DNA from: a virus
Virus record (IMG/VR): IMGVR_UViG_3300050121_000049
Span: 1 to 38,049 of that record
Direction: 5' to 3' (one strand)
DNA: 38,049 nucleotides
A model generated the notes under the pieces. It worked only from the letters and a program-made list of their open reading frames with translations. It searched no databases and was not told the origin of the DNA. A program made the position numbers and the translations under genes. This document shows positions 24,289 to 38,049 of this stretch, in pieces (the stretch's first letter is position 1; each line of letters opens with the position of its first letter).

Positions 24289-24599
24289 CACGCATTGCCC
24301 TCTGCCGGCATGTTGCGAACCTCAAAATCGACAATGAAGCCGCGAAGCTCCTTGTCGATCAGGTTCATGCGATCAAGATCGTCGTCAGTCGGTTCAGCAC
24401 CAGGATCGAGAATCGTCATGATGCTTGTGAAAAGATGCTGCGCGCCGGCAAAGAATGCATTGCGCATTTCAGAGAGTTGGATCGGCGGAGCGTCGAGCGG
24501 GATCGCCGCGAGCCGCAGTCCGATCCAGCCGGCCTCGATCAGCTTTCCTGCATCGGTGAGGCGTCGTAACTCGCGTTCCAGAAATGCCTTGTCGGCCAT
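24288..24599 (-). CDS. Small conserved helical phage protein
   Basis: A 103-residue protein with a GAGGTAG site. Almost entirely helical (ERELRRLTDAGKLIEAGWIGLRLAAIP...QLSEMRNAFFAGAQHLFTSIM). I recall it as a recurrent hypothetical in rhizobial phages next to ParB-like genes. Role unknown. Confidence 0.65.
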   Translation of the reverse strand: MADKAFLERELRRLTDAGKLIEAGWIGLRLAAIPLDAPPIQLSEMRNAFFAGAQHLFTSIMTILDPGAEPTDDDLDRMNLIDKELRGFIVDFEVRNMPAEGNA

Positions 24600-24601
24600 G
24601 G

Positions 24602-26236
24602 CTACCTCGCCTTCTTCTTCGCGGCCTTAGCCTTCGCGACCGGCTTGGCAGCCTTCGGTCCATCATATTTGGACGTCCGCATTTCCGGCGGCAGATACCC
24701 GGCCTTGCCGCCAGCGTTGGACTTCTTGACGAGATCGGTCGCCAGCTTTGCCAGCTCGGATTTCTTTTCCTTGCCGGTGATCGGCTGCTTCGGATCGCAG
24801 AGCGCGATGGCTTCCTTGCAGGCTTGTGCCGTGACGCCGGCGAAATAGTCCGCTGCATCGAAGCTGGCGCGGAGTTCGGCGTTCAGCTTCTTCGCATCGA
24901 GGGCTTCGAGCAGCGCGCGATCCTCGTCGCGATCTTCGGCAAGCGGCAGCATGTGCTGCACGCTACCGCCGAGGTCGAGCGCGGATGCCGCCAGACCGGC
25001 GAGAATGCGGATGAGCTGGTCAACCGGCTTCTTGCGGAACATAGCAAGCTGTTCGGCAAACTCGCTGTCGTCCTCGCCGCGGTTGTGTTGGATGCAGACC
25101 GGACCATCTTCCGATGTCAGTGCGGCCGCAATAGCTGCCAAGCCGAGATTTGAGTCGAGCGCCAGGACAGACTCGGCCGCCGTGGTGATCTGCGCCGATA
25201 TCCTACCGGCCAGCGCGGCAGAGATCATTGGCGCGGCAGCTTCACCTTTGGCGACAGCCTTCTTCTTCTCCGTCGCCTTCTTCTCGGAAGGCTTCTGCAC
25301 GCCGTACTTTATCTCGATCTCGCCGTTGTGCTGCTGCCCGACGATGACACCATACTTCTCGCGGTCTCCGGCTGTGATCTGGCCTTTCGGCAGGCTGGCC
25401 CACCATCGCGCACCGTCAGGCAGGTCGCTGCCGTCAGAAACCCACTTCCAGCCCTCGCCTTTCAGCCGCTCAATGGTGGTCGCGATCTTTTCGTCGGCGA
25501 GCTTTTTGAGCAGCTTGAGATCGGTTGCGACCAGTTCCGGATTATTCTCATGCGTGAACAGATCCTCGGTGGTCGCTCCGCCAGCCGTCTTGTAGGCCTC
25601 GATGCCGACCAAGCGCAGCAGCCCGGCAGTCTGGTGAGACTCGCCCAGTATCTCGCCTCGGATTTCATGACAGCTGGTGTGCTTGCCGACCTTCTTGAGA
25701 ATCGCCACCTGCCGTTTCAGATCGGTTTCCAGCGTGAACGCGCCGGCCTCATCCTCGTCGAGATCACCCTTGCGCCAGGCGGCACGGACCTCCGGAGCAA
25801 GCCGCCCCAGCGCCAGCGATTGCTTCACGGACTTCGCCGATAGTCCGTAATCCTTCGCAATCGCCTCAGGCGTCTTGCCGGCATCGACCAGCTTTGCGAA
25901 GGCCTCGAACTCATCGACGGGATGCATCGCGGTGCGGATGTAGTTTGTGGTCAGCGACGTGTCGGCAGCAGCGGCCTCGTCATCCTCTCGCAAGATGCAT
26001 GGCACCGGCGCGGCCTTGTCGTAATCGCCGTCGCGGGCCAGGATGTGCAGGGCCTGTAGCCGCATGCCGCCATCGGTGACGAGATAGCCCGCTCCGTTCT
26101 TGCGGACGGTCAGCGGCACCAGCAATCCCTTTTCGCGGATGCTGGCGAGTAGGCCTTCGTCCGGGGCCTTATCGGTCTGGCGGACGTTGGAGGGGTCGAT
26201 CTTGAGGTCGGAAAGTTTGGCTTCGATGATTTGCAT
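24602..26236 (-). CDS. ParB/RepB/Spo0J family protein
   Basis: A 544-residue protein. Residues 1-100 are the ParB N-terminal nuclease-like domain (LKIDPSNVRQ...LLASIREKGLLVPLTV...YLVTDGGMRLQAL, then TNYIRTAMHPVDEFEAF). Residues ~122-150 hold a helix-turn-helix (TPEAIAKDYGLSAKSVKQSLALGRL). The long C-terminal region is phage-specific and ends in an Ala/Lys-rich basic tail (AKAKAAKKKAR). There is no parA beside it, so partitioning is unlikely; phage ParB-like proteins can act as DNA nicking or regulatory proteins. It starts by TAATG overlap with the gene upstream. Confidence 0.85.
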   Translation of the reverse strand: MQIIEAKLSDLKIDPSNVRQTDKAPDEGLLASIREKGLLVPLTVRKNGAGYLVTDGGMRLQALHILARDGDYDKAAPVPCILREDDEAAAADTSLTTNYIRTAMHPVDEFEAFAKLVDAGKTPEAIAKDYGLSAKSVKQSLALGRLAPEVRAAWRKGDLDEDEAGAFTLETDLKRQVAILKKVGKHTSCHEIRGEILGESHQTAGLLRLVGIEAYKTAGGATTEDLFTHENNPELVATDLKLLKKLADEKIATTIERLKGEGWKWVSDGSDLPDGARWWASLPKGQITAGDREKYGVIVGQQHNGEIEIKYGVQKPSEKKATEKKKAVAKGEAAAPMISAALAGRISAQITTAAESVLALDSNLGLAAIAAALTSEDGPVCIQHNRGEDDSEFAEQLAMFRKKPVDQLIRILAGLAASALDLGGSVQHMLPLAEDRDEDRALLEALDAKKLNAELRASFDAADYFAGVTAQACKEAIALCDPKQPITGKEKKSELAKLATDLVKKSNAGGKAGYLPPEMRTSKYDGPKAAKPVAKAKAAKKKAR

Positions 26237-27225
26237 TATATTCTCCGCATTTGGCTGGTATTTTTCGTTTGCTTGACGGCCGCATCGGCCATGATTGCCG
26301 TGACGCAGGCTTTCATCTTTGAGACGGAAACGGCGTTGCCGATCTGCTTAACCTTCTCGGTCTTCGTGCCCGCAAACTCATAGGCAGCCTCGTCACTATC
26401 GAACCCCATCGCAGCGGCGAGCTCGTGCGGCTCAAGCATCCGGAATAGAATGTCGTATTGCGGAGTTGCTTCGATCAGATTGATGTGACCGGTGGCGCAT
26501 ATTGCCGGCGTTGGATCATCGATGCCGTGCACGCGCGGGGCCTGGCATTCGCGCTCGCCGAACTGTGCCGCGATGAAAGCTAGTTCGCCGCGGTGCGCCG
26601 TCGTCAACGTGGGTAACGGATCGGTCTCAACATCTCTGGCGCGCTGGCTACCGTCGTCGTGGGTGACTGGAACCACCATGCCGAACCGGCCCTTCGAGGT
26701 GACGGTAGGCAAGGGATTTTCGACGCTCTGGCATGTCTCGCCGGAACCTGAACCGTAGTAGGGCGAGATCAGGCAGTGGCTATGTTTTGCCACCTGCGTT
26801 GGGGTCGGTTCTTCGACCGATCGTGGCGCACCCTCGCCATGGCGGGAGAGCACGAACGGCTCGATCAGATAGCCGGCACCGCGACAGTTTGCCGTGGGTG
26901 TCGGATCCTCGACAGAATGCGACCGCGTCTCGCCGTACCCATCACCATGACGGTTGAGAATGAAAGGCTCGACTAACATCGGCCGCGCGCAGCCGTTGTG
27001 ATCCCGTGACCCGGCCCCTCCGGTCGTGATGGTTGGAAGCGGCTCATTGGTTATGCGTGGTGAGCCTGTGCTTCCGGGCGCCATCACGAACGGTTCGGCC
27101 ATGTAAATATGAGCAGCGTGCGAGGTTTGCGTAGGTAGCGGAACATCGATGCTGTCGGCCTTGATCTCGGCGACGAGCTCGGCGTCGTCTTTCTCGATCA
27201 TGGTGTCCCAGTGGTCGGTCATCAT
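26236..27225 (-). CDS. C-terminal half of a cytosine-C5 DNA methyltransferase, catalytic half missing
   Basis: About 329 residues from the ATG pair at 27225/27222; an ATG at 27252 is also possible. The region carries seven spaced PLPT/PTPT-type motifs (VPLPTQT, EPLPTIT, DPTPTAN, EPTPTQV, NPLPTVT, DPLPTLT, DPTPAIC) alternating with EPFILNRHGDGYGE-like stretches, as in the variable part of large phage C5 methyltransferases. The end (RMLEPHELAAAMGFD...QIGNAVSVSKM) matches the last conserved motifs. The cofactor motif, the PCQ cysteine loop and ENV are absent, so it cannot methylate alone. The upstream DNA encodes a membrane protein instead. It may work with a separate catalytic chain outside the window, or be a remnant. 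Confidence 0.75.
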   Translation of the reverse strand: MMTDHWDTMIEKDDAELVAEIKADSIDVPLPTQTSHAAHIYMAEPFVMAPGSTGSPRITNEPLPTITTGGAGSRDHNGCARPMLVEPFILNRHGDGYGETRSHSVEDPTPTANCRGAGYLIEPFVLSRHGEGAPRSVEEPTPTQVAKHSHCLISPYYGSGSGETCQSVENPLPTVTSKGRFGMVVPVTHDDGSQRARDVETDPLPTLTTAHRGELAFIAAQFGERECQAPRVHGIDDPTPAICATGHINLIEATPQYDILFRMLEPHELAAAMGFDSDEAAYEFAGTKTEKVKQIGNAVSVSKMKACVTAIMADAAVKQTKNTSQMRRI

Positions 27226-27632
27226 GTGCCACCAAAGCGGACGAGCGGACATACTCTCTGCTTGATGCTCTTGAGATATTGCCAAAGCAAAGAGAAGAAG
27301 CCGACCTTGCTGATGCCAATGATTGCAAAAACTAAGCATCCCGCTAGAAGCGCCACACCCAAAACGAATGCCTCTGGAAAGAAGTACGTTGCCACATCAA
27401 CGAGCGGGCCGGCGTCGGAATGCGATCTCATAAACCCATTATGGAGCCCTACGTGAACAGCGCAGATTACAAGGATGGCAAAGCTAGCTATTGCCACGCT
27501 GAAGAGAGGCACCCAGAGGATCGACCAAAATATGTGGCAGAGCGTCGTTCCCTGCTCGATGTAGTGTGCGCCGTTCCTGCTGCGCTCTATATTTTTGCCA
27601 TCCTCCTTGACAGTGTACCAAGCCGTAGTCAT
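27222..27632 (-). CDS. Membrane protein of unknown function
   Basis: A 136-residue protein from ATG 27632 (MTTAWYTVKEDGKNIERS). Two membrane segments (LWVPLFSVAIASFAILVICAVHV and FVLGVALLAGCLVFAIIGISKVGFF) are separated by a polar loop, with a basic C-terminal tail. It overlaps the methyltransferase remnant by ATGA. Its sequence is AT-richer than its neighbours, and it occupies the place where the methyltransferase catalytic domain would be expected, so it may have arrived by recombination. Confidence 0.55.
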   Translation of the reverse strand: MTTAWYTVKEDGKNIERSRNGAHYIEQGTTLCHIFWSILWVPLFSVAIASFAILVICAVHVGLHNGFMRSHSDAGPLVDVATYFFPEAFVLGVALLAGCLVFAIIGISKVGFFSLLWQYLKSIKQRVCPLVRFGGT

Positions 27633-27717
27633 GGGGAGGTGATCGCACGACCACACGAAATATCGAGCGAGCACCCCACCGGATTCCAAGCTGATCATTT
27701 TAATTTTCCTTTGCTGT

Positions 27718-28428
27718 TCATGCGCCTACGCGCCGCTTCTGCTCAAGCCAGTGCTTGGCGGTGAACTTGGTGTCGACGTCCATGTCGGATTTGTTGACGA
27801 GCCAGGACAGGTAATCGCCGGGCAGCTCCGACCATGCTTGGCCGCGATGCTTGCCGAAGGTCACGCGGGGCAACAGTGACGGTGCCGAGCTCCACGCGAT
27901 CATGTCCTCGACGGTGACGAGCTTCAGCGCTTCCATCAGGATGAAGCCGGTTACGTAAGCGTCCGGACTCGCGCGGTGCGGCGGCATCGCCAACGCTTCG
28001 TCCAGTTCGACTTTCAGGAAGTACCGCAAGCATTGATTGGTGTGGCTTGGGCATTCGGGCCAGAGACGGCGCGCGACTTTTAGTGTGCAGATCCAGGGGG
28101 TTTCACCGCCGGTGAAGAACTCCATTTCGAATCGCGCATTATGGGCGACGAACGCGGTCGGGAAACCATCCATCAATTTGCGGAAGCCAACTTCGATTGG
28201 AGGTGCGCCAACAAGATCGGCGTCGGAAATATGGTGAATTGCCCTCGCTTCCGGCGGCATCGGTCGGCGCGGATTTACCAACATGCCTTCCGGCTCGCCT
28301 ATCTGCCACTGCATCAGACCGGTGGTGGGATCGGCATCGCGGCCAACAACGTCACAAAACCCTACCTCGCAGACGCGGGCGTCTGGCGGCATTCCATCAG
28401 TCTCGAAATCGATGACTCTCAGCCGCAT
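27718..28428 (-). CDS. DEDDh-type 3'-5' exonuclease (DnaQ-like)
   Basis: A 236-residue protein from ATG 28428 (TGATG overlap with the HNH gene); the longer frame to 28644 is the shadow of that gene. Exo I: VIDFETDG (D7, E9). Exo II: VAHNARFEMEF (with E101 where Asp is usual). Exo III: HRASPDAYVTG (H151, D156). Residues ~188-215 (VTFGKHRGQAWSELPGDYLSWL) form a DUF3820-like module that often follows phage exonucleases. Likely proofreading or recombination-related 3' end trimming. Confidence 0.85.
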   Translation of the reverse strand: MRLRVIDFETDGMPPDARVCEVGFCDVVGRDADPTTGLMQWQIGEPEGMLVNPRRPMPPEARAIHHISDADLVGAPPIEVGFRKLMDGFPTAFVAHNARFEMEFFTGGETPWICTLKVARRLWPECPSHTNQCLRYFLKVELDEALAMPPHRASPDAYVTGFILMEALKLVTVEDMIAWSSAPSLLPRVTFGKHRGQAWSELPGDYLSWLVNKSDMDVDTKFTAKHWLEQKRRVGA

Positions 28429-28970
28429 CAGACATGTCTCCATGTTCGTCCGTCGTGAATGGCTTGCACCGTTGTTTTCCCGATGCCGTACAGAACGGCG
28501 AGTCTGGCCTGAGAGAGATTTCCTTTTTTTCGCTTTATCGCGGCAGCAGATTCGGCGGTGAGCCTCGTCATGTGGTTTTTCAGGCCCAGCAGTTTTGTGC
28601 CGTGCCGTTCTTGGTCCGCTAGATTTGCGATGTGAGTGTCCCAACGAAGGTTGGTGAGGCGATTGTTGCTCGGCCTACCGTCGCCGTGACAACCTTCTAG
28701 GCCGTCGGGGGCTAGCGAAACGAATGCCTCCAAGACTAGAGTGTGGACTCTCGCCGTTCGCTTCCGGCCTAACTGAACGTGGAGATGTCCACTCTTTTGC
28801 CTTCCGGGCCTTAAAACTCGGCCTCGGCATCTTTGCTTAACTGTGTGGACGCCACCGCGACCGTCTCTCTTCATATAAGAGATAACCCGATCCACACTCC
28901 GAACGCGCCCAAGGTCCGAGACCTCATACTGCCCCTCAAATCCGACAACCGGTTTCCAGTTCTCGACCAT
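28428..28970 (-). CDS. Free-standing HNH homing endonuclease (NUMOD4-HNH-HTH)
   Basis: A 180-residue protein. NUMOD4 at ~5-27 (WKPVVGFEGQYEVSDLGRVRSV), an HNH core at ~85-115 (TLVLEAFVSLAPDGLEGCHGDG..SNNRLTNLRWDTHIAN), and a C-terminal helix-turn-helix (LSQARLAVLYGIGKTTVQAI). Such enzymes cut DNA lacking the insertion and spread by repair. It is joined to both neighbours by TGATG overlaps, so its arrival left operon coupling intact. Confidence 0.85.
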   Translation of the reverse strand: MVENWKPVVGFEGQYEVSDLGRVRSVDRVISYMKRDGRGGVHTVKQRCRGRVLRPGRQKSGHLHVQLGRKRTARVHTLVLEAFVSLAPDGLEGCHGDGRPSNNRLTNLRWDTHIANLADQERHGTKLLGLKNHMTRLTAESAAAIKRKKGNLSQARLAVLYGIGKTTVQAIHDGRTWRHV

Positions 28971-29161
28971 CAGACAATCTCCGGTGCTGGATATTTCTTC
29001 ACAAGCGTATCGAGGCCGAGCTGGTATTCCGCCGGCTCAAGCTTGCGCTCGGTGGTCGCGACAATCGGCAAGTCATGACAACCGACGCGCGGCTCGAAGA
29101 TGATCTGCGGAAACGGAACGCCGTTGCGGGAAACGTAACAGAAGGTGCGGGGACGGTTCAT
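28970..29161 (-). CDS. Small phage protein, function unknown
   Basis: A 63-residue protein from ATG 29161 (ATGA overlap). Beta-rich start (TFCYVSRNGVPFPQIIFEPRVG), helical end (AEYQLGLDTLVKKYP). The longer frame to 29281 is a shadow of the neighbour. No family recognised. Confidence 0.55.
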   Translation of the reverse strand: MNRPRTFCYVSRNGVPFPQIIFEPRVGCHDLPIVATTERKLEPAEYQLGLDTLVKKYPAPEIV

Positions 29162-29394
29162 ACGATCGACTCCATGGGAATGCCGAAGGCGCCACAATAA
29201 CCGCGCCTCTCGCCGTCGAGCTTCGCGCCGCGGTAGGCTTCCCAGCGCCAGGCCATGCAGGCAGAGGCCATGCAGAAGCAATCCACGTCGGGTGAGTTGC
29301 CGCAGCGGTTGACGGCAACTCGATATTCGCTGTGGTTATCTCCGGCGCGGGCGTGCGGGCACCACTTGGTCTTCGCCTGATCTTCAGTCAGCAT
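29158..29394 (-). CDS. Small cysteine-rich phage protein
   Basis: A 78-residue protein, start at 29394 (TGATG). WCPHARAG...CGNSPDVDCFCMASACMAWRWE...GYCGAFG places several Cys and a His suited to binding a metal or cluster. I recall similar short proteins in rhizobial phages. Role unknown. Confidence 0.6.
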   Translation of the reverse strand: MLTEDQAKTKWCPHARAGDNHSEYRVAVNRCGNSPDVDCFCMASACMAWRWEAYRGAKLDGERRGYCGAFGIPMESIV

Positions 29395-29636
29395 CACGCC
29401 TTCCTCCGATAAAAGTAGACTGTGCCGCGTGGACCTTGCGCGCTGGTACGCTCGATCATCCCGGCCTCAGCCAGCATCCTGACGCAGTAGCGGATGGCGC
29501 TGTCGTCGCTTGGCCGATGCAGCTTCTCCGCGATCGCGGCGACGTTGCACCACTGGTCGGTGAGCGCGGCCAGGATCGGCGCCTGTAGATCGGCCGACTT
29601 GTTCGGTGCGTAGCGGCGGGCGGAGAGTGTGGTCAT
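29394..29636 (-). CDS. Small winged-helix DNA-binding protein
   Basis: An 80-residue protein. ADLQAPILAALTDQWCNVAAIAEKLHR.SDDSAIRYCVRMLAEAGMIERT...GTVYFYRRK is a typical winged helix (helix-turn-helix plus a C-terminal beta wing). Likely a local regulator; it follows the tas-like gene in the operon. Confidence 0.7.
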   Translation of the reverse strand: MTTLSARRYAPNKSADLQAPILAALTDQWCNVAAIAEKLHRPSDDSAIRYCVRMLAEAGMIERTSAQGPRGTVYFYRRKA

Positions 29637-29680
29637 TTGCTCGGTCTCGTCTTCACGACGATGATCACGCCAGGATGTGG

Positions 29681-30649
29681 CTACTCAGCCGCCTGTTGAT
29701 GATGGTGAGGCAGATGGCCAAGTTTCCCGATGGCGTATGGATCGGTCACGGGCAAGCCCTCAAGCGCGCGCCATTTCGCCCATAGATCGGCCAGAAACAT
29801 TTTGACCATGTAGCGGATGGCAGCATTTTTGATCCGACCGGGAGTCCACACATTTCGGAGATCGTCGCCGGCCTTGTGCATCTTCTTCCATTCTCCGACC
29901 GTGATCTTGATCCTCGCCGGGTCGCTATTGATCCGATGGCGATAGCTGTCAAACGCCTCGCGCCAGGGCGAGTTAGATCGCAGGAATGAAGGCCCCATCG
30001 CGCCTAGCAGTTTCATCTTCAGCCATGGATTATATGCCGTCGAAAGCCGCGTCGCGGCGTTGCCATTCTTGTCGATGTATTCGCGGTCGATCAGATGCTC
30101 GGCTCTGCGCGACCTGCCGGCACCATCGGACCCGACGTCAAGGCCGGTGTATTTCCAGAACGATGATGCATGACGCGCCTTGGCTGGGTCTAAATATGTG
30201 ATCAGTACGGCGGCTAGCGCGGGACCGATGCCGCGAACGTCGGCGAGATATTCGGTATAGATCGGAATTTTCTTGAGCGTGTGAACGAGCTGACCGAATT
30301 GAGATGTCTCCTGCGACTCCAGCCGCATATACTGATCGATCAGCATCAACTCTGTGTAGTCGGAAATCAGCTCGTCGCCGGTGAAGCCGGACTCGAGAGG
30401 GATCGTGCGGTTGCGGGCGACGCCATCCGTCAGCCGGCGATATGACGCCTTGAGCTGATCGATGATCTTCACCGCGTCAGCCGACAGTTCATCTGTAACG
30501 ACGCCATCTTCGTCGACGATCTCTTCTTCGGTCTTAAGCTTGGCGCGGAAATTGGCGCAGAGGCGAAGGCCGGCCTGCATTCGCAGGGCTTGGAGATCGT
30601 ATGATCCTCGGACCATCAACTTGAGAAGTCGGATATTTTCTGCTGACAT
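29681..30649 (-). CDS. Tas-like protein: coiled coil plus IS110/Nop-type RNA-binding domain, no nuclease
   Basis: A 322-residue protein directly beside the 36-bp array. Residues ~5-130 are long helices (coiled-coil-like). Residues ~131-235 carry the IS110 Transposase_20/Nop-like signature (YLADVRGIGPALAAVLITYLD at 134-154, then SFWKYTGLDVG). Residues ~265-295 (VWTPGRIKNAAIRYMVKMFLADLW) complete it. The DEDD/RuvC-like domain of IS110 transposases is absent, and so is any HNH domain. Coiled coil plus Nop domain is the plan of Nop5-like proteins and of TIGR-associated (Tas) proteins, which bind short tandem-spacer guide RNAs and pair them with DNA. Without a nuclease it might block DNA rather than cut it. 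The start has a weak ribosome-binding site lying in the last array repeat. Confidence 0.75.
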   Translation of the reverse strand: MSAENIRLLKLMVRGSYDLQALRMQAGLRLCANFRAKLKTEEEIVDEDGVVTDELSADAVKIIDQLKASYRRLTDGVARNRTIPLESGFTGDELISDYTELMLIDQYMRLESQETSQFGQLVHTLKKIPIYTEYLADVRGIGPALAAVLITYLDPAKARHASSFWKYTGLDVGSDGAGRSRRAEHLIDREYIDKNGNAATRLSTAYNPWLKMKLLGAMGPSFLRSNSPWREAFDSYRHRINSDPARIKITVGEWKKMHKAGDDLRNVWTPGRIKNAAIRYMVKMFLADLWAKWRALEGLPVTDPYAIGKLGHLPHHHQQAAE

Positions 30650-30654
30650 TTTAA

Positions 30655-31149
30655 TAACTCGCTTTCAGGGTCTGGGTTTCTGCTGTTCCATGGCTCGCTC
30701 TACAACTTTGGTGTTCTGTAAGTGGCTGGCTCGCTATTCTTCCGTGGGTTGCTCCGCGTCTCTGGCTCGCTATCGCTTATTGGGTTGCTTCATTAACGTG
30801 GCTCGCTGCATCAGCATGGATTGCTAAGCTGCTTTGGCTCGCTCCGATGGCTTGGGTTGCTATTTTCCTTTGGCTCGCTGCGCATCTTTGGATTTCTGGA
30901 CGGAAGTGGCTCGCTGTAGTGGACTGGGTTTCTCTCACTTGCTGGCTCGCTACTGGACCTTGGCTTTCTTCAAGCGCCTGACTCGCTGACGCTTTATGGG
31001 TTACTCAGATCTCCTGGCTCGCTTCGGTGGATTGGGTTGCTAAGAATCACTGGCTCGCTGGCAGGGACTGGGTTACTCCGCAGCGGTGGCTCGCTAAAAA
31101 CGATTGGATTTCTTACACTCAATGGCTCGCTTGCGAACTCTGGGTTTCT
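30655..31149. repeat. TIGR-like array: 14 units of 36 bp with alternating edge and loop repeats
   Basis: On the + strand each unit is edge repeat TGGCTCGCT (9 bp), a unique 9-bp spacer, loop repeat TGGRTTNCT (9 bp) and a second unique 9-bp spacer. Edge repeats start at 30655, 30691, 30727 and every 36 bp to 31123; loop repeats start at 30673, 30709 and so on to 31141. Spacing is exact throughout. Twelve edges are identical; the first is TAACTCGCT and the one at 30979 is TGACTCGCT. The loop copies vary more. All 27 internal spacers differ. The array fills the gap between a gene stop at 31166 and the tas-like ATG at 30649, so it is probably transcribed on the - strand with the operon. A 36-nt unit with two spacers equals the reported size of tigRNAs. 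Confidence 0.9.
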
Positions 31150-31165
31150 GGCGGGAGACGGCATT

Positions 31166-31663
31166 TCACGGCCATGAATTCTGCATCAGGCCGCCTGGAC
31201 TCGCCGCGAACTCGGCACGATCGGAGGAGCGGGGGATTATAGACGACGCCACCTCCGGCATGCTGTCCCTGCTCGCGACGAGTTTCTCTGGATTTGGACC
31301 TGCCACGGGCTCCGCATTCGTTTCCTGGCTTGTGAGTTCAGGCGGCGAGATGTTGAGGGAGCCCGCAGCAGGTTTCTCGGATTTTATCTTCGGCTTGCGT
31401 AGTCTCTCGATCATCGGGTCGAGCTGCGCCGGCGTCGCCAATGCCGGTATCAGCCGTGACACGCCATAGCCCTGTCGAGATCCATCAAGGAAGCGCCAGA
31501 AACCGTTGCGAGGAAAGAACGAAACCCTGTCGGCAACGCGATATTTGATACCGTCAAGGTCGGTAACAGTGAGGCCCTTGCTCTCAAGCGCCCTGATGTT
31601 GCAAGGCACGATGGTCCGCGCAATCATTCGCCGGCTCTGGACGGAATCGATGATCAGGTTCAC
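31166..31663 (-). CDS. Conserved phage protein of unknown function
   Basis: A 165-residue protein starting with GTG at 31663, which overlaps the upstream stop (GTGA); ATG at 31627 is an alternative. The conserved-looking part is residues ~1-90 (MIARTIVPCNIRALESKGLTVTDLDGIKYRVADRVSFFPRNGFWRFLDGSRQGYGV). The rest is Pro/Ser-rich and probably disordered. Its stop lies 17 bp from the last loop repeat of the array. Function unknown. Confidence 0.6.
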   Translation of the reverse strand: MNLIIDSVQSRRMIARTIVPCNIRALESKGLTVTDLDGIKYRVADRVSFFPRNGFWRFLDGSRQGYGVSRLIPALATPAQLDPMIERLRKPKIKSEKPAAGSLNISPPELTSQETNAEPVAGPNPEKLVASRDSMPEVASSIIPRSSDRAEFAASPGGLMQNSWP

Positions 31664-31920
31664 GGCGCCGGCCTCCTCGGATCGTTGCGAAAATCGGCCC
31701 ATGCAGTGAAAGCGATATCGGGATCGTCGAATACAGCCCCGTTCGGAAGTTCGTAAACCTGCGAAATCGGTTCAAGCTCGCCTTCGACGTCTACCGAGAT
31801 GCAGATGACCTGTAGGCCGGGGCACGGTAAAACGGAAAACGTTTGGCGAATGCTGCCGTCGCGAAGCGCTTCAGTTTTTACCAACTTCGATGCTAAAACT
31901 CGTTCCGAATGTAACGTCAT
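31660..31920 (-). CDS. Small phage protein, function unknown
   Basis: An 86-residue protein from ATG 31920 with an AAGGAA site. The frame is open upstream to 32280, but that part only translates the pentamer array and is rejected. The protein is beta-rich (QTFSVLPCPGLQVICISVDVEGE...YELPNGAVFDDPDIAF). No family recognised. Its ribosome-binding site is the first normal sequence after the array. Confidence 0.6.
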   Translation of the reverse strand: MTLHSERVLASKLVKTEALRDGSIRQTFSVLPCPGLQVICISVDVEGELEPISQVYELPNGAVFDDPDIAFTAWADFRNDPRRPAP

Positions 31921-31933
31921 ATCGAAATTCCTT

Positions 31934-32340
31934 GCCTGCTGTGCCTGTCCTCGCCGTGCCACTACTTGTCCAGACTTGCCTTGCCTGCACTGCTTAGCCG
32001 AACCCGGCCTCGCCGCTACTCGCTCTGCCATGCCTCGCCTGCCTTGCCCGTCCTCTACATTCCGCTCCACGCCATTCCACGCCACGCCTGCGTTGCCGAT
32101 CCGAGACCTACCTCTCCGCTCCAAACCATGCCTCGCCTGCGCTGCCACTCCAATGCCCGCCTGACCTTTCCACGCCGCGCCTCGCCTTGCCTGCATCGCC
32201 TGACCGGGCCCTGGCGTACCTTGCCAGGCCGTGCCACGCCTGCATCGCCTCTCCTCGCCGCTCGACCGATGCCGCTCCATTCCATGCCTGCATTGCCTCT
32301 CCGAGCCTTTGCTGGCCAGGCCGTGCCCTTCCTACGTCGT
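31934..32340. repeat. Pentamer array: GG every 5 bases on the - strand, superperiod about 49
   Basis: On the + strand CC recurs in 5-base steps (on the transcribed - strand GG), with GCCTGC marking a 4-base step once per superunit. GCCTGC starts at 31934, 31983, 32037, 32086, 32135, 32189, 32238 and 32286, so intervals are 49, 54, 49, 49, 54, 49 and 48 (multiples of five plus four, with one near-exception). The sequence between the fixed GGs varies, which suggests selection on spacing of GG rather than on a protein. It separates two genes in the early operon and has no believable ORF. Confidence 0.75.
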
Positions 32341-32610
32341 CGCCTCAAGCTGCTGCACTGAAGGCGACCCCGTTACTTGCTCGACCTTGCCGATGCCGTG
32401 TTCCGCGCGTGTCAACGCGATCACCTGACGGAGTTCGTCAAGCTCAGGCAGCGGGTGAAGATCGAGAATTGAAGAAATACGGTTGAGGATCGCGCCGATC
32501 AGGGCGCGTCTCTTGTCGGGATTTGCTAGGATGACCTTTGTCTGAGTGTATCCATCCGCGCCGCCATGTCTTATCGAGCATGTGGCAATCCTTCCTGTAA
32601 TGTGAGTCAG
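32332..32610 (-). CDS. Small phage protein with unclear start codon
   Basis: The frame ending at 32332 reads like a real protein from about 32610: HITGRIATCSIRHGGADGYTQTKVILANPDKRRALIGAILNRISSILDLH, then LPELDELRQVIALTRAEHGIGK. There is no ATG, GTG or TTG near the RecT gene end at 32622. The possibilities are CTG 32610 (AGGA upstream) or ATT 32589 (GGAAGG directly before). About 85-92 residues. Similar nearby start ambiguity is not seen elsewhere in the operon. Function unknown. Confidence 0.45.
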   Translation of the reverse strand: MTHITGRIATCSIRHGGADGYTQTKVILANPDKRRALIGAILNRISSILDLHPLPELDELRQVIALTRAEHGIGKVEQVTGSPSVQQLEATT

Positions 32611-32621
32611 ATCATCCTGTT

Positions 32622-33767
32622 CTAGGATTTGTCGGCGTCCCTGACCTCGGCGCACTTCGCGGCCAGCTTTTCCTGCAGGGACTCGCGGGCATCGGCGCCG
32701 ACGTTGGCTTTGTTGCGGATGGTCTTTTCCGATTTCCAACGAGCCTCGCCAGCATCGGCATCGGTCAAGTTGACGATCCAGATCGTGGTGGCTTCGACGT
32801 ATTCCTTCTCATTCGTCGGTGTCTTGCCGGCGGCCGTGGCCGCCCCCTTTTCCGTGCCTGCCTTGGAGGGGTCAGCAGCAGTTGAGGGAGCGGCCTGGCC
32901 TGACGCATCGGACGGTCCGGGATGGGCGTCCTTCTGCGACGAAGCTGAATTGCTGGCGGGGCTGGCCCTGTCAGGGTCCTGGGTTTCCTGGGCTGAAGGG
33001 TGGGCCTGCCCCGCCTCCGACGCGTCGCCAGATTTCTCTCCGGTGGCGGCAGACGCGGCGGAATTAGATTGTTCGGTGACTTCGCCGGTTTCAGGGTCAT
33101 GGTCGACCTGGTTGGCGGTCGACGCAGCGCCACTGGCGAAGTCATCCAGCGACCGGCGCATAGCCGGGCTGATGTCGCGCATCGGCGCCGGCTCCATGGT
33201 CTCGATCTCCTCGATCACCGGCATGCCGAGCATGACTTCCGGCGCATAGAGCCGAATCAGCATCGCCGCCGATCGCCAACGCAGCATGTGCTCCGGCATT
33301 GAGGTATACTTGGCGTTCTTCGTCCAGTTCTCGGCGCGCGCCATCTTCATGTCGCAGGTAACCGAGATGGTCTCGCCGGAATCCGCGAGCACGGCGCTGG
33401 CGGTGACGGCCAGAGCATCACCCTCGCCCGACGGTTTCCAGCTGATGCGGTTCTTGAATACGCCGGCCTTGTTGGCGCGCGCGATCACGTATTCGGTTTT
33501 CCAACCAGGCCGACCGCTGACGACGTAGATGTTTTGGAACACCGTGAGCGGCTCCTCGTTGAGCCGGCGCGCGATCTGATAGGCGATCAGGCAATCCGCG
33601 ACCTGGCCCTTGAGATGCGGAGGCACCAGGTTCGACGAGGCGAACACCTTGGCGACGCGCTGGGCGTGCTCGAACGATGCGGGATCGGAGAAGACATCGG
33701 TGGTCGAAACGAAGTGACGTGTTGCAGGAAGGTGAACGACTTCGGCAGTTGCGGCTTCTTCGGACAT
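32622..33767 (-). CDS. recT: RecT family single-strand annealing protein
   Basis: A 381-residue protein with a GGAG site. Residues ~20-215 carry the RecT core (QRVAKVFASSNLVPPHLKGQ..DCLIAYQIARRLNEEPLTVFQNIYVVSGRPGWKTEYVIA...GVFKNRISWK, then MPEHMLRWRSAAMLIRLYAPEVMLGMP). Residues ~215-325 are a Ser/Ala/Asp-rich linker, longer than usual. The C-terminal ~55 residues are helical (EYVEATTIWIVNLTDADAGEARWKSEK). It anneals single strands during phage recombination and pairs with the YqaJ-type exonuclease at 34565. Confidence 0.9.
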   Translation of the reverse strand: MSEEAATAEVVHLPATRHFVSTTDVFSDPASFEHAQRVAKVFASSNLVPPHLKGQVADCLIAYQIARRLNEEPLTVFQNIYVVSGRPGWKTEYVIARANKAGVFKNRISWKPSGEGDALAVTASAVLADSGETISVTCDMKMARAENWTKNAKYTSMPEHMLRWRSAAMLIRLYAPEVMLGMPVIEEIETMEPAPMRDISPAMRRSLDDFASGAASTANQVDHDPETGEVTEQSNSAASAATGEKSGDASEAGQAHPSAQETQDPDRASPASNSASSQKDAHPGPSDASGQAAPSTAADPSKAGTEKGAATAAGKTPTNEKEYVEATTIWIVNLTDADAGEARWKSEKTIRNKANVGADARESLQEKLAAKCAEVRDADKS

Positions 33768-33799
33768 AGAAAAGCTCCTTGATGTTGACGCGTCGGTTG

Positions 33800-34561
33800 C
33801 TACCTAAAGCGGGCTTTGGTGTCGGGGAAAATGCGGGCACCAGTGATCTGGCGTCGCCCGGATTTGACGAAGGCGCGGAGCGCTTGTTCGATCGCGGTCT
33901 GTAGCATGAACGGGCGCAATGCATTCAGATCGATGATGTTGAGATCTTCGATTTCGAATGACCACGCTTCTTGCAGGGTCGAACTGCCCGCTGCCGTCTG
34001 CGTCCGCGCCAGCTCTGACGGTTTCGCGTTGGCAGCATCGGCAGCTTGATCCGCGCGCGTCTCTTGCTCATCGGCCTTCGCCTGGGCGAGCGCGGCCTTC
34101 TCGACGTTGCCGGCCTTCACGGCTTCGGCCGCTTCGCGCTGTGCCTTGGCGGCGGCTTCGCGGGCTACGGCTTCCTCGGCCTCTCGCCTGGCCCGCTCCG
34201 CAGCGGCTTTCTTTCGCAGATATGCGGTGGCACGGGCACCGAGCATTGCCTGGGCCTTGTCGGCGCGCGCCATGAAGCCCTTGAAGAAACCATCGATCAC
34301 GCGCTTGGCTTCAAGATGCGGTCTGCCGGTATCGTCGCGTAAGGCGTCGCAACGCTTCGAGGCCGAGCCAAGTTTTACGGCCAGTGCATTGACCGTTTCC
34401 ATATCCAGATCATCTTCGATCACCAGCGGAGACTCGGCGGCTGCCTTCTCCAGCTCGGTAATGAAGGCCTCGACCTGAGGAAAATCCTTGGCGAGCTGAT
34501 CGGTTGTGATCATTGCCGGACGGTTGTCGCCGGCCACTGGTGTCTTTGCAGCTACGTTCAT
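33800..34561 (-). CDS. Coiled-coil phage recombination-region protein
   Basis: A 253-residue protein between RecT and the exonuclease. Residues ~20-110 (DQLAKDFPQVEAFITELEKAAAESPLVIEDD...LEAKRVIDGFFKGFMARADKAQ) form a helical domain, ~110-190 an Ala/Glu/Arg-rich coiled coil (RKKAAAERARREAEEAV), and the C-terminal part a small alpha/beta domain (WSFEIEDLNIIDLNALRPFM). This type of protein is common beside phage RecT-exonuclease pairs, but its role is not known to me. Confidence 0.65.
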   Translation of the reverse strand: MNVAAKTPVAGDNRPAMITTDQLAKDFPQVEAFITELEKAAAESPLVIEDDLDMETVNALAVKLGSASKRCDALRDDTGRPHLEAKRVIDGFFKGFMARADKAQAMLGARATAYLRKKAAAERARREAEEAVAREAAAKAQREAAEAVKAGNVEKAALAQAKADEQETRADQAADAANAKPSELARTQTAAGSSTLQEAWSFEIEDLNIIDLNALRPFMLQTAIEQALRAFVKSGRRQITGARIFPDTKARFR

Positions 34562-34564
34562 GGC

Positions 34565-35497
34565 TCAAATCCTCTTAACTGCTAGGCGACGATGCTGAGA
34601 AACAGACGCCTCTTTTGGCTTGTGATTGACGGTGATGACCGGCCATGTGGCCTTCCACCCCTGGACACAAAATCCAAGCGCATCGCCGATCTTTGATTTT
34701 ATCTCCGTCTCAAGTTCGGAGACGCGATCTTCCTTCTTCTTGATCTCGGCCTTGAGCGCTTCGCGCTCGTCTAGGAACATCGGCATCGCGTTATCACTTC
34801 GAAGATCGAGAATCGTTCCGTCGTCGCGGCGGAAAAGACGCTTCACCAAATCAGCATCGCGCGTCGGATCGATCGGCGGCTGCACGTTCGCGTCGAGATA
34901 ATCGCGGCAGAAATCCAGGACGCATTGTCTGATCTTGGCCTCGGCGCCGGGGTTGCGTTCGACCGGGAAAACCTTCAGCTCCCACTTGAACGTATCGACG
35001 ATCAGGACAGCAATCATGGCCCAGGGCGCATCGGCAAGCATCGCTTCGGTGAGCGTCTGCAGTTCGTAGGCCAGCGGAACGACGGCCTGATCGTTGTCGT
35101 CGAGCCAATGCGCCTCATACCAAGGTCGCGAAACAGTCTTGCACTGAATTATGCCGACACCTTCGCGGCCGGGGATCACGGCTGCACCGTCTGGCGTCGC
35201 GCCGAGTCGGCTCTCACGGTCGCAAAGGAAAACGCTGGCGGGCTTTATTTCCCATTGCGGAAAATGCCATTGGAGAGCGCGGAACACTGCTGGCTCGCCG
35301 ATGATGCCGCGAAACATTGCATCGTTCATTTCCTGAGGCGGAGTGAGGCCCTTTTTGTCGGCCCACACCTTGGCGGCAGAGCCGAACAGGCCCTCGCCGC
35401 ATACAGCCGGGACATCAGAGGCGGTGACAAAGCCGCGTCGATAATCCAGCCACGCGTCGCGGTTCTTTACCGGATCAATTGCGATTCTTTCGATCAT
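34565..35497 (-). CDS. YqaJ-type viral recombinase exonuclease
   Basis: A 310-residue protein with ATGA overlap to the gene before. Nuclease motifs are DAWLDYRRGFVTASDVPAVCG (~14-34), RGIIGEPAVFRALQ (E68), LGATPDGAAV (D103), VGIIQCKTVSRPWYEAHW (Q118-x-K120) and PLAYELQTLTEAML. Most lambda-exonuclease-like enzymes have E-x-K where this has Q-x-K. The C-terminal ~80 residues are a coiled coil (ERE..KAEIKKKEDRVSELETEI). It should resect DNA ends to load RecT. Confidence 0.85.
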   Translation of the reverse strand: MIERIAIDPVKNRDAWLDYRRGFVTASDVPAVCGEGLFGSAAKVWADKKGLTPPQEMNDAMFRGIIGEPAVFRALQWHFPQWEIKPASVFLCDRESRLGATPDGAAVIPGREGVGIIQCKTVSRPWYEAHWLDDNDQAVVPLAYELQTLTEAMLADAPWAMIAVLIVDTFKWELKVFPVERNPGAEAKIRQCVLDFCRDYLDANVQPPIDPTRDADLVKRLFRRDDGTILDLRSDNAMPMFLDEREALKAEIKKKEDRVSELETEIKSKIGDALGFCVQGWKATWPVITVNHKPKEASVSQHRRLAVKRI

Positions 35498-35826
35498 CGC
35501 CCCGCCTCCAACTTGACATGCTTGCCGGTGACGTCGGACAGTGTCGTCGCCATCATCTGCGCCTGCCCGATAGCTCGCTTTGCGCGTTCGATCTCGCCGC
35601 GATACCGACCCGACGCGGCATGCATTTCCTGCAGGTTCTGCGTCGCGCGGGCCACCTTCACGTCTTTGATGTGGACGGCCGCCGCCAGCAGCATGTTCGC
35701 TGCGGCGAGAATGACTTCCTCGCTCTCATCGATGATCCAGACGGTACCGACGAACACCGGTTTCGTTGCCTGGTCGCAGGTCGCTTGAGCGTGCGCGACG
35801 GAAAGGATTGAGACAACGTTGTTCAT
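35494..35826 (-). CDS. Small helical phage protein, function unknown
   Basis: A 110-residue protein coupled on both sides by ATGA. Mainly helical, with a hydrophobic central stretch (SEEVILAAANMLLAAAVHIKDVKVARATQNLQEM) and a C-terminal helix (ERAKRAIGQAQMMATTLSDV). Located just before the exonuclease gene. No family recognised. Confidence 0.6.
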   Translation of the reverse strand: MNNVVSILSVAHAQATCDQATKPVFVGTVWIIDESEEVILAAANMLLAAAVHIKDVKVARATQNLQEMHAASGRYRGEIERAKRAIGQAQMMATTLSDVTGKHVKLEAGR

Positions 35827-36011
35827 CGGTCACCCCATGAAGAATCTGCGCTGTGGCAATCAGCGTCGGCGCGCAATGTGATTTCGTTGAGAACTCGAAC
35901 GAGGGCCTTCTGTTTGGAAGCCGCCGGTTCGGCGATCTTTGCAGCAAGCGCATGATTGATCAGCACCAGCTTTTTCAGAACGATAACTTCAACTGGGGTG
36001 ATCTCGATCAC
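35823..36011 (-). CDS. Small phage protein, function unknown
   Basis: A 62-residue protein starting with GTG at 36011 (GTGA overlap, GGAGGGCGAG site). Helical (VIVLKKLVLINHALAAKIAEPAASKQKALVRVL). The frame upstream of 36011 is a shadow. Unknown. Confidence 0.5.
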   Translation of the reverse strand: MIEITPVEVIVLKKLVLINHALAAKIAEPAASKQKALVRVLNEITLRADADCHSADSSWGDR

Positions 36012-36151
36012 GACCTCGCCCTCCGCCGATGAATGCTGATGATTGTCGCGGAGTCCTCGGAACGCCGCGCCGGCAGCGGCTTGAAGTAGAGCGCGGCGGC
36101 AACGATGGCGTTGAAGGCTAACCATGCGGCGATGGCGGCGATCCAGATCAT
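36008..36151 (-). CDS. Tiny single-pass membrane protein
   Basis: A 47-residue protein from ATG 36151 (TGATG). One membrane segment (MIWIAAIAAWLAFNAIVAAALYF) and a basic tail. Unknown function. Confidence 0.5.
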   Translation of the reverse strand: MIWIAAIAAWLAFNAIVAAALYFKPLPARRSEDSATIISIHRRRARS

Positions 36152-36444
36152 CACACCACCACGCCTTTCGGAGCCGTCAAACCGATCCATTTGCGAAAGG
36201 CAGTCAACGCATCGACGGCCGCCATTTGATCCGGCGCTTCTGGAACGCCAGGGACAAGCAGAGTTTCAGTACCGGGTATTTTGGTCGGTCGACCGTTCAC
36301 AATCTCGGTGCGGTATCCGTGGCGAGCGCGTACTTCGATAAAATCGCGCAACACCTTCGCTGGGCCACGCGCAACTGGCAGTGCGCCATCAGGCATCGCG
36401 CGGCCGAACTCGATCAGGCCTGAGGCGTAGCAATATGCTCTCAT
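36151..36444 (-). CDS. Conserved phage protein of unknown function
   Basis: A 97-residue protein from ATG 36444 (ATGA). MRAYCYASGLIEFG..MPDGALPVARGPAKVLRDFIEVRARHGYRTE is a pattern I recall in rhizobial phage hypotheticals, followed by LVPGVPEAPDQMAAVDALTAFRKWI. Role unknown. Confidence 0.6.
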   Translation of the reverse strand: MRAYCYASGLIEFGRAMPDGALPVARGPAKVLRDFIEVRARHGYRTEIVNGRPTKIPGTETLLVPGVPEAPDQMAAVDALTAFRKWIGLTAPKGVVV

Positions 36445-36683
36445 GACAGCCACTCCCGATGTGCGACGGAACTCAGCCTACGATCTCGGACAGGCGGCAG
36501 ATCCGGCACGTCGCCGTGGACCCCCTCCTGCTTCAACCGCATCCAGCCGCCGACCGTCCGCATGGCGGTTTCGTAGCCGATGCACCAGCCGATGATGCCA
36601 AGTGGTCCGCCGAAGCCGGTGGCGCCGATGGCGAGGCCGGCGTAGAACGGATGCAAGATGGCGAAGGCGATGAGGTCGGCCAT
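36441..36683 (-). CDS. Small membrane-associated protein
   Basis: An 80-residue protein from 36683 (TGATG). Hydrophobic, glycine-rich N-terminal half (IAFAILHPFYAGLAIGATGFGGPLGIIGWCIGY) and a polar tail. Unknown. Confidence 0.55.
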   Translation of the reverse strand: MADLIAFAILHPFYAGLAIGATGFGGPLGIIGWCIGYETAMRTVGGWMRLKQEGVHGDVPDLPPVRDRRLSSVAHREWLS

Positions 36684-36910
36684 CACATCGCCCTCGCCGC
36701 TTTGAGCGCCGGATACGCGCGGCTCTCAACCAGCCGCCAGAGTTTCTCGGCGGTCTCGTCGTCGCGCAGTACGAACCATCGGTAAGGATCGGTCGCGAAC
36801 AGGCACCACATCGTGAAGTCGTTGGCGCCGATGACGCCAGCCTCGACGAGCTCGTGCCGGTCGATCGAGCGGAGGATGCAGAGGCGGTTGCGGAATTCTA
36901 AGCGGGTCAT
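36683..36910 (-). CDS. Small phage protein, function unknown
   Basis: A 75-residue protein coupled by ATGA to the gene before. Helical and aromatic (NDFTMWCLFATDPYRWFVLRDDETAEKLWRLVE). No recognised family. Confidence 0.55.
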   Translation of the reverse strand: MTRLEFRNRLCILRSIDRHELVEAGVIGANDFTMWCLFATDPYRWFVLRDDETAEKLWRLVESRAYPALKAARAM

Positions 36911-37248
36911 TGGGACACCGCTTTTTCGGCGGCTCGAAATTCGTCGCTGGTGCTCGTCTTACGCCCGGCGGCGACCATCGCGTCGTAGGCTTCGAGGGCC
37001 CTAACCGCTTTCGAGAGGGCCTTTCGGAGGTCCAGCATGTCGCCCGGGTGATGATCGTAGTCGCTTCTGCGGCGCCGCATCTTGAGACCGCCGATTTCCT
37101 CGATCATGTCCGTCGCGGAGCCGACGATGGCGACCGACAGGTGAATGAAGTTGTCGTAGGTTTCCGGAGCGATGTGAACTGTCCGACCATCGTGCTTGCG
37201 CTGGTCGCGAGCGTGATCGGCGGTTTCGTCGGCTGTGGCGGCGCGCAT
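36907..37248 (-). CDS. Small phage protein, function unknown
   Basis: A 113-residue protein; I prefer ATG 37248 to 37284, because the tiny membrane ORF upstream ends at 37250. Basic and His-rich start (ETADHARDQRKHDGRTVH), then helical (MLDLRKALSKAVRALEAYDAMVAAGRK). Unknown. Confidence 0.5.
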   Translation of the reverse strand: MRAATADETADHARDQRKHDGRTVHIAPETYDNFIHLSVAIVGSATDMIEEIGGLKMRRRRSDYDHHPGDMLDLRKALSKAVRALEAYDAMVAAGRKTSTSDEFRAAEKAVSQ

Positions 37249-37249
37249 C

Positions 37250-37357
37250 TCAAATCCCCCAAACGAGGAACGAGAGCGCCGCAACCCCGGGCGCCGCGAT
37301 CAGCGCCAGAAGTGTCGTGATGAGGAAGATGTGGATGTCTGAGGTGGTGGAATGCAT
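37250..37357 (-). CDS. Tiny single-pass membrane protein
   Basis: A 35-residue ORF whose ATG overlaps the previous stop (TGATG at 37359-37355). It is almost wholly a membrane segment (IHIFLITTLLALIAAPGVAALSF). Tight coupling supports it as real. Unknown role. Confidence 0.5.
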   Translation of the reverse strand: MHSTTSDIHIFLITTLLALIAAPGVAALSFLVWGI

Positions 37358-37857
37358 CACGGCACCACCTGAAAGGCCGTGTCACGCACCTCGCCCCAAG
37401 CGTAGCTGTCGATCGGGCGGTAGAAGCCCGCCTTCGATAGCGCAGCCAGATAGCTGCGGAACGACTTGTCGCCCATGCCAGCAGGCCGAGCGTTGTCGAG
37501 GTAGACATCGCGCCACTCGCCCGTGGACGGCCCCTCTGCATGCTGGCAAAGGGATTCGAGGACTTCCTTGGCTTTGGAGGTCAGCTCTGGCTCGACCGCG
37601 GCAGCGCCCAGCGAGCGCAGTTTGGGTTCCGGCTCTTGCTGCCGGGTGTCATCCGAATTGAAAACCCGGAGCTGCCGGCCATCCTCGTAGGACCTCCAGG
37701 CCTGCATCGTCTTGTTGGCCTGATCGAGCAAGGCCGCTTTCGGCATCGAGCCGGCCCGCACCAGCTTGTTCTCGTCGATGAAAGCGTTGCGAACTTGCCA
37801 TTCGCCGCCAGGTGCGCGGGACTGAACGTTGATCGTTGTTTCGGTGTGGGAATGCAT
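37357..37857 (-). CDS. First gene of early operon; winged-helix-like phage protein
   Basis: A 166-residue protein from ATG 37857 with a GGAGGG site; an ATG at 37869 lies before that site. The C-terminal ~75 residues (SKAKEVLESLCQHAEGPSTGEWRDVYLDN...GDKSFRSYLAALSKAGFYRP) look like a winged helix. The N-terminal part (WQVRNAFIDENKLVRAGSMPKAALLDQANKTMQAWRSY) is unassigned. As the leading early gene behind an operator-controlled promoter it may be a regulator or replication protein. Confidence 0.6.
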   Translation of the reverse strand: MHSHTETTINVQSRAPGGEWQVRNAFIDENKLVRAGSMPKAALLDQANKTMQAWRSYEDGRQLRVFNSDDTRQQEPEPKLRSLGAAAVEPELTSKAKEVLESLCQHAEGPSTGEWRDVYLDNARPAGMGDKSFRSYLAALSKAGFYRPIDSYAWGEVRDTAFQVVP

Positions 37858-37880
37858 GGGACCCTCCAAGGCGATGGAGG

Positions 37881-37903
37881 GAAGTTACACCTATCGAAAC
37901 TTC
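37881..37903. promoter_or_regulatory. Repressor-type operator 1
   Basis: GAAGTT, 11 bases, AACTTC: an exact inverted repeat with CCTATCGA inside. It overlaps the early promoter spacer and -10, as expected for repression. Confidence 0.65.
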
Positions 37904-37911: not shown

Positions 37912-37915
37912 GCGG

Positions 37916-37938: not shown

Positions 37939-38049
37939 TGCCTCGATGCGGCACCGCACCACGAATTTCGAGTTAACGGCCTCGAAAAATCGGCGACATC
38001 GATTCGCGATAGGAAAGGGGCTGCCAGAAAGGGAAACGAGCTCTCCCAA

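What the first reader, a model, noticed from the sequence alone, without database searches (positions are those of the whole stretch)
30655..31149. TIGR-type guide array in a phage early operon
Fourteen 36-bp units, each with two different 9-bp repeats and two unique 9-bp spacers in exact register, abut a gene for a Nop/IS110-like protein. From memory, TIGR-Tas systems (Faure and colleagues, 2025) use arrays with edge and loop repeats and two spacers per 36-nt guide RNA, with a Nop-domain Tas protein. The match in unit length, repeat alternation and neighbour is very close. An example inside a rhizobial-type temperate phage, embedded in its recombination operon, may be undescribed.
Basis: partly seen in the sequence, partly recalled or inferred. 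Interest (0 to 1): 0.95.

Follow-up and report, generated by a model that had tools for sequence, protein, structure and literature searches.

The report
TIGR-TasA guide array in temperate phage
A bacterial virus carries a 14-guide TIGR array directly in front of the gene for its nuclease-free partner protein TasA; it is a clear new member of an RNA-guided DNA-targeting family described in 2025, whose natural targets remain unknown.

Summary
Fourteen 36-nt units lie on the minus strand at 30655-31158. Edge repeat is AGCGAGCCA, loop repeat AGMAACCCA, with two unique 9-nt spacers per unit. They end 14 nt before the start codon of a 322-aa protein (29681-30649, minus) in an early recombination operon.

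The TIGR-Tas reading is supported. The protein's only significant PDB relatives are TasR and TasH. Its AlphaFold2 model matches TasH (Z 19) and TasR (Z 18), above IS621 (13) and Nop5/Nop56 (7). It lacks any nuclease domain, so it is TasA. Of 89 distinct contigs with relatives, 86 carry a dual-repeat array beside the gene, on the same strand. The experimentally studied Salicola phage array uses the same edge repeat. Edge positions 2-7 and 3-6 covary as RNA pairs over 77 loci.

Corrections: the strand is minus; the array is 9-15 nt longer than reported; the 'rhizobial' host is unproven. A search for natural spacer targets found nothing beyond chance.

Verdict: a new member of a known kind. Side findings: related arrays share, shuffle and point-mutate units, suggesting growth by duplication and drift; and the last half-edge sits at the tasA ribosome-binding region, allowing processing-based feedback (untested).

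The parts
30655..31158 (-). TIGR array: 14 guide units (spacer A - loop - spacer B) joined by edge repeats, 36-nt register; transcribed leftwards with the operon
31159..31164 (-). probable 5'-truncated edge repeat (ATGCCG) that opens the array, 1-2 nt after the stop codon of the upstream ORF
   Evidence: matches the 'begins with 5' truncated edge' rule in PMC12045711
30691..31131 (-). 13 full edge repeats AGCGAGCCA (one AGCGAGTCA), every 36 nt: 30691-30699 ... 31123-31131
30673..31149 (-). 14 loop repeats AG(A/C/T)A(A)(C/T)CCA, every 36 nt: 30673-30681 ... 31141-31149
30655..30660 (-). 3'-truncated terminal edge repeat AGCGAG (then TTA instead of CCA), in the ribosome-binding region of tasA
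29681..30649 (-). tasA: 322-aa solo Nop-domain (TasA-type) protein, ATG start
31166..31702 (-). 178-aa ORF of unknown function immediately upstream of the array, same strand (operon member)
32622..33767 (-). RecT-like ssDNA annealing protein gene, same early operon
   Evidence: phrog_561, E 1.4e-59
33800..34561 (-). exonuclease-like gene (phrog_10477), same operon
34565..35497 (-). YqaJ/RecE-like recombination exonuclease gene, same operon
29394..29636 (-). 80-aa winged-helix-like protein, next gene downstream of tasA
   Evidence: weak hits

Best explanation
It is a dual-repeat TIGR-TasA locus of a temperate contractile-tailed phage. The minus-strand early transcript carries the array in the 5' leader of tasA. 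TasA dimers recognise the edge and loop repeats (box C CCA, box D-like AG; pairs G2-C7 and, in edges, C3-G6). The precursor is cut in the middle of each edge into 14 tigRNAs of 36 nt, each with two 9-nt spacers. Spacers A and B pair with opposite strands of an 18-bp DNA target (target strand 5'-A-revcomp(B)-3', gap 0-2). Because the protein has no HNH or RuvC domain, it should bind, unwind and bend its target rather than cut it. I think the likeliest outcome (about 50-55%) is repression or replication block of non-self DNA, such as rival phages or plasmids. Shown here: array anatomy, strand, protein family, fold, absence of nuclease, repeat covariation, and no above-chance match to its own phage genome. 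Inferred from the characterised TasA/TasH/TasR systems: processing and tandem-spacer binding. Guess: the biological role. The confidence given is for the identity and the RNA-guided binding mechanism, not for the role.
For: Array: exact 36-nt register, score 266 vs shuffle maximum 18.5. Protein: phmmer best PDB hits TasR 9mty (5e-10) and TasH 21kl (2.5e-9); the family profile hits only these two, 6e-27 and 5e-18; Pfam shows only the IS110 C-terminal domain, no HNH/RuvC/DEDD. AF2 model pLDDT 87, pTM 0.81; VIA-align Z 19 TasH, 18 TasR, 13 IS621, 7 Nop5/Nop56, with model residue 1 aligning at TasH residue 63, past its HNH domain. Synteny: 86 of 89 distinct contigs encoding a relative carry a same-strand dual-repeat array beside it; the three exceptions are contigs cut near the gene. 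Positive control: Salicola phage CGphi29, whose TasH/tigRNAs were studied experimentally (PMC12045711), has edge AGCGAGCCA and loop AGACAACCA in 36-nt units. RNA signature: over 77 loci edge positions 2-7 are GC/AU/GU and 3-6 are CG/UA; loops keep 2-7 only, as in the TasR structure described in the paper. Naked array RNA is not structured (z +1.65), as the paper expects. No self-target above chance.
Against: No RNA evidence. No natural target found: exact composite targets of 5 of the 14 guides in IMG/VR gave 0-20 hits each, in unrelated or low-complexity genes, and an orientation-agnostic test over 2.5 Mb shows no peak once the loci fetched by those patterns are set aside. No terminator follows the array, although most described arrays end in one. 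Box D reads AG instead of the UG of TasR arrays. TasA function is unknown in the literature read.
Confidence: 0.93

Rival explanations
1. The gene is a degenerate IS110-family transposase and the repeats are leftovers of its bridge RNA or of target duplications.
For: Pfam PF02371 (IS110/IS116 C-terminal) and PHROG 'transposase' hits; IS621 is a structural match at Z 13.
Against: No N-terminal DEDD domain: the model aligns to IS621 only from residue 124 on, and no Pfam DEDD hit in 54 relatives. TasH/TasR score clearly higher in sequence and fold. A multi-unit guide array next to 86 of 89 relatives is not an IS110 feature; the gene is intact and maintained in phage early modules.
Confidence: 0.02
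2. The repeats are an array of DNA-binding sites (iterons) for a replication, partition or regulatory protein; the neighbour is incidental. A ParB-like gene and a winged-helix gene lie in the same operon.
For: Regular 18-bp spacing of similar 9-mers; ParB-like protein at 24605-26236, small winged-helix protein at 29394-29636.
Against: The array beside the gene keeps one polarity relative to the Tas gene in all loci. Edge positions covary as RNA pairs, and loops differ from edges in the way the TasR structure predicts. The same repeat is known to be processed to guide RNA in Salicola phage TIGR (PMC12045711).
Confidence: 0.03
3. TIGR-TasA is right, but its role is regulation of the phage's own or its host's genes, or assistance to the phage integrase or recombination, rather than interference with rival elements.
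For: Sits in the recombination operon with RecT and exonucleases; Faure et al. suggest TasA-induced DNA bending could aid phage integrases.
Against: Guide pairs of the window and its nearest relatives match their own phage genomes no better than re-paired guides. Fourteen unrelated guides, with turnover between related phages, suit changing non-self targets better than fixed self-regulation. Host genes could not be tested.
Confidence: 0.35

Closest known systems
TIGR-TasH of Salicola phage CGphi29 (SpTIGR; HQ634153)
   Same: 36-nt units, identical edge repeat AGCGAGCCA, near-identical loop AGACAACCA, Nop-fold effector matched over 54% of the query at 29% identity, same strand
   Different: TasH has an N-terminal HNH nuclease and 8-nt spacers, and its array lies downstream and ends in a terminator; here there is no nuclease, spacers are 9 nt, and the array lies upstream in the tasA leader
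TIGR-TasA (e.g. Flavonifractor plautii FpTIGR; Faure et al. 2025)
   Same: solo Nop-domain protein, dual-repeat array, 9-nt spacers, 36-nt units
   Different: direct sequence comparison not made (sequence not identified in the databases at hand); FpTasA array is described as downstream
TIGR-TasR (PDB 9mty)
   Same: Nop fold (Z 18), box C CCA, tandem spacers, loop with an A-rich tetraloop-like centre
   Different: RuvC nuclease in TasR; box D is UG there, AG here
IS110/IS621 bridge-RNA recombinases
   Same: shared Nop-like RNA-binding domain (Z 13)
   Different: no DEDD catalytic domain here, no single bridge RNA, no transposon ends
archaeal/eukaryotic box C/D snoRNP (Nop5/Nop56)
   Same: distant fold similarity (Z about 7), box C/D-like motifs around two guides
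   Different: no fibrillarin, L7Ae or K-turn; guide array rather than single RNAs

Membership tests
TIGR-Tas, dual-repeat type | two distinct alternating 8-12-nt repeats separated by ~9-nt spacers, ~36-nt units, several units | tested here: met
   14 units, exact 36-nt register, 9+9+9+9; score 266 vs shuffle maximum 18.5
TIGR-Tas, dual-repeat type | adjacent gene for a Nop-domain (Tas) protein | tested here: met
   PDB profile hits only TasR/TasH; AF2 model Z 18-19 to TasR/TasH, ~7 to Nop5/56
TIGR-Tas, dual-repeat type | array begins with 5'-truncated and ends with 3'-truncated edge repeat | tested here: met
   ATGCCG at 31159-31164 and AGCGAG-TTA at 30655-30663 on the minus strand
TIGR-Tas, dual-repeat type | box C/D-like motifs shared by edge and loop, with covarying pairs and an extra pair in edges only | tested here: met
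   edge 2-7 GC/AU/GU and 3-6 CG/UA across 77 loci; loop 2-7 GC only. Box D is AG, not the UG of TasR arrays
TIGR-Tas, dual-repeat type | rho-independent terminator after the array (typical in the paper, not defining) | tested here: not met
   no terminator-like site between array and tasA; here the array leads straight into the gene, an 'upstream' placement the paper also describes
TIGR-Tas, dual-repeat type | processing into 36-nt tigRNAs bound by Tas | not testable with these tools
   needs small-RNA sequencing
TIGR-Tas, dual-repeat type | tandem-spacer DNA targeting | tested here: inconclusive
   no natural target above chance; biochemical test not possible
TasA subtype | Nop domain without HNH or RuvC nuclease | tested here: met
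   Pfam finds only PF02371 in 54 relatives; model aligns from residue 63 of TasH and residue 112 of TasR
IS110 transposase | N-terminal DEDD (RuvC-like) catalytic domain | tested here: not met
   absent from Pfam scan and model
CRISPR-Cas | identical 25-36-nt repeats with similar-length spacers and cas genes | tested here: not met
   two alternating 9-nt repeats; PADLOC scan of tasA and seven other genes of the window gave no CRISPR effector or adaptation hit, only a generic DEDDh exonuclease model

The most novel reading that the evidence does not exclude
The array is built into the tasA leader so that its last half-edge overlaps the ribosome-binding region. TasA-dependent processing of that edge would then cut the tasA message and make the system self-limiting. 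At the same time the arrays of this phage family diversify not by CRISPR-like acquisition but by unit duplication, point drift and recombination.
Probability: 0.25. Interest if true: 0.6.

Novelty: new member of a known kind. Interest (0 to 1): 0.42.

Why it matters
TIGR-Tas was described in 2025; natural targets, the role of nuclease-free TasA and the way arrays change are open. This locus is compact (1.5 kb), intact, in a temperate phage's early operon, with an edge repeat identical to that of an experimentally studied system, so it is a practical test bed. The family data gathered here (about 2,000 guide units from 142 array-bearing records) show drift and duplication of units, which makes the array-evolution question testable by comparison. 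They also show that PHROG 'transposase' family phrog_4285 matches this TasA strongly (E 1e-33).

Tried and rejected
Spacer targets: composite 18-mers in both geometries and gaps 0-2 against the phage's own sequence, sister contigs, relatives and two jumbo phages, with re-paired guides as control: no excess. Exact scans of IMG/VR for 5 of 14 guides: one hit in a phage dam gene (unit 5), none (unit 11), eight (unit 14), two (unit 6), twenty (unit 10). The hits fall in unrelated genes or alanine-rich repeats, so they were judged chance. An orientation-agnostic search peaked only at loci fetched by those same patterns. Host: no tRNA, no close phage relative by DNA; the window is an IMG/VR record, not a bacterial genome. 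Plasmids: no TasA. Rfam: no match in the window. Conserved neighbours: relatives lie among DNA polymerase, helicase and exonuclease-like genes, but none of the clusters of neighbouring ORFs found in 6 or more loci includes a window gene, and one apparent cluster was antisense reading of the arrays. TasParB: a ParB-like gene is in the operon about 4 kb downstream but not adjacent, so not claimed as TasParB.

Full report
What was checked. The window is a 38,049-bp IMG/VR virus record. A dynamic-programming scorer gives 266 against a maximum of 18.5 in 2000 shuffles of the segment. All six frames contain stops, so it is not coding.

Strand and ends. On the minus strand, the strand of the neighbouring gene and operon, the repeats are AGCGAGCCA and AGMAACCCA, both ending in CCA, the box C of the TIGR literature. 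Only in this reading do the ends make sense: a 5'-truncated edge (ATGCCG) and spacer A1 at 31150-31164, just after the stop codon of the upstream ORF, and a 3'-truncated edge (AGCGAG-TTA) at 30655-30663, followed by TTAAA and the tasA ATG at 30649. That gives 14 guides of 9+9 nt. No promoter or terminator stands out between array and gene, so the array is most simply the leader of the tasA message in the early operon, which also holds RecT-like and two exonuclease genes.

The protein. The 322-aa product hits Pfam's IS110 C-terminal domain weakly and PHROG 4285 'transposase' strongly (1e-33). Its PDB relatives by sequence are TasR (9mty) and TasH (21kl), 5e-10 and 2.5e-9 alone, 6e-27 and 5e-18 with a family profile. 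The AlphaFold2 model from 54 relatives (pLDDT 87, pTM 0.81) matches TasH at Z 19, TasR at Z 18, IS621 at Z 13 and Nop5/Nop56/Prp31 around Z 7 (Foldseek). The match begins at TasH residue 63 and TasR residue 112, past most or all of their nuclease parts, and no nuclease domain is found in the family. It is a TasA. The 'transposase' labels are misleading: the DEDD domain is missing.

Relatives. A profile scan found 149 IMG/VR loci, of which 80 were fetched, besides twelve from a first scan and two genome contigs. Eighty-six of 89 distinct contigs carry a same-strand 36-nt array beside the gene; the three exceptions are contig ends. Arrays lie downstream in 37, upstream in 17, both in 10 of 65 loci. 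The window's exact edge-N9-loop-N9-edge pattern occurs in 98 IMG/VR stretches (a few are loci already held). Salicola phage CGphi29, the TasH system whose RNAs were sequenced by Faure et al., has the same edge AGCGAGCCA and loop AGACAACCA. This serves as a positive control for both the array finder and the membership claim.

RNA signature. Across 77 loci the edge consensus keeps pair 2-7 as G-C (42), A-U (25) or G-U (10), and pair 3-6 as C-G (68) or U-A (7); the scorer did not look at position 6. The loop keeps only 2-7 with an A-rich centre. This is the pattern the TasR structure paper describes: a box C/D pair in both repeats, one extra covarying pair in edges, and a tetraloop-like A-rich loop (PMC12045711). 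The naked array folds worse than shuffles.

Targets. Guide pairs were searched against the phage's own genome, a sister contig that is 100% identical over window 18367-38049, related phages and two jumbo phages, with re-paired guides as control: no excess. Exact scans of IMG/VR for five guides gave hits compatible with chance. An orientation-agnostic search over 2.5 Mb showed no peak outside the loci fetched by pattern. The natural targets therefore remain unknown; self-targeting by these guides is not supported.

Array change. Related arrays share whole units in partly shuffled order, and other units differ by one to three letters in the spacers. Within arrays there are 37 unit pairs with at most 3 of 18 spacer letters different, against about 4 expected after re-pairing; separations of one or two units are the commonest (the first count, included a spurious chain in L039). 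This suggests growth by unit duplication followed by drift and recombination. The window array itself has no near-duplicate units.

How it most likely works. Shown: anatomy, strand, family, fold, lack of nuclease, repeat covariation, no self-target. Inferred from characterised relatives: TasA-dependent processing to 36-nt tigRNAs and tandem pairing to both strands of an 18-bp DNA site. Role (about 50-55%): non-cutting interference with non-self DNA by blocking transcription or replication; host-gene regulation or help to recombination is the main rival. A possible extra is feedback, because the terminal half-edge sits at the tasA ribosome-binding region in the window and the last repeat lies within about 8-45 nt of the start codon in most of the 27 loci with upstream arrays; this is untested.

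Verdict. It is a new member of a known kind. The host label 'rhizobial' is unproven, and whether this very locus was in the 2025 survey could not be checked.

Noticed in passing
window 31930-32350 (minus strand): About 420 bp with a strong 5-nt periodicity (GGCAN/GGCGN-like units, also 44/49/54-nt lags) between the early ORFs and the RecT gene; no match in the phage collection or Rfam. Unexplained.
   Followed up: partly
L008-L012 (jumbo-phage contigs of 172-315 kb), upstream of tas: Relatives carry chains of 85-118 repeat sites (about 42-59 guides) upstream of a TasA with two large insertions; guides shared, drifted or replaced between the contigs.
   Followed up: partly
L026/L028, L046/L049, L054-L058, L075/L078/L082: Units of related arrays differ by 1-3 spacer letters, are reordered, and near-duplicate units occur within arrays: array growth by duplication and drift rather than polarised acquisition.
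   Followed up: partly
G002 (IMGVR_UViG_3300027898_000002) 5449-5749 and 18934-19332: The nearest diverged relative (77% identical TasA) has two same-strand arrays about 13 kb apart with looser repeats and 8-11-nt spacers.
   Followed up: partly
PHROG family phrog_4285: Labelled 'transposase' but matches this TasA at 1e-33; likely a mislabelled Tas family.
   Followed up: no
antisense of TIGR arrays in 45 relatives: Because 36 nt is 12 codons, antisense reading of arrays yields spurious repetitive ORFs (GSL..GFL..) that cluster as a false protein family.
   Followed up: yes
window 24605-26236 and 26236-27339 (minus): ParB-like protein next to a C5 cytosine methylase-like protein in the same leftward operon; the published TasA partner TasParB is also ParB-like, but this gene is not adjacent to tasA.
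   Followed up: no
window 18367-38049 versus IMGVR_UViG_3300050120_000208: A sister contig is 100% identical over this half, including the array, and extends 15.5 kb beyond the window's right end.
   Followed up: yes
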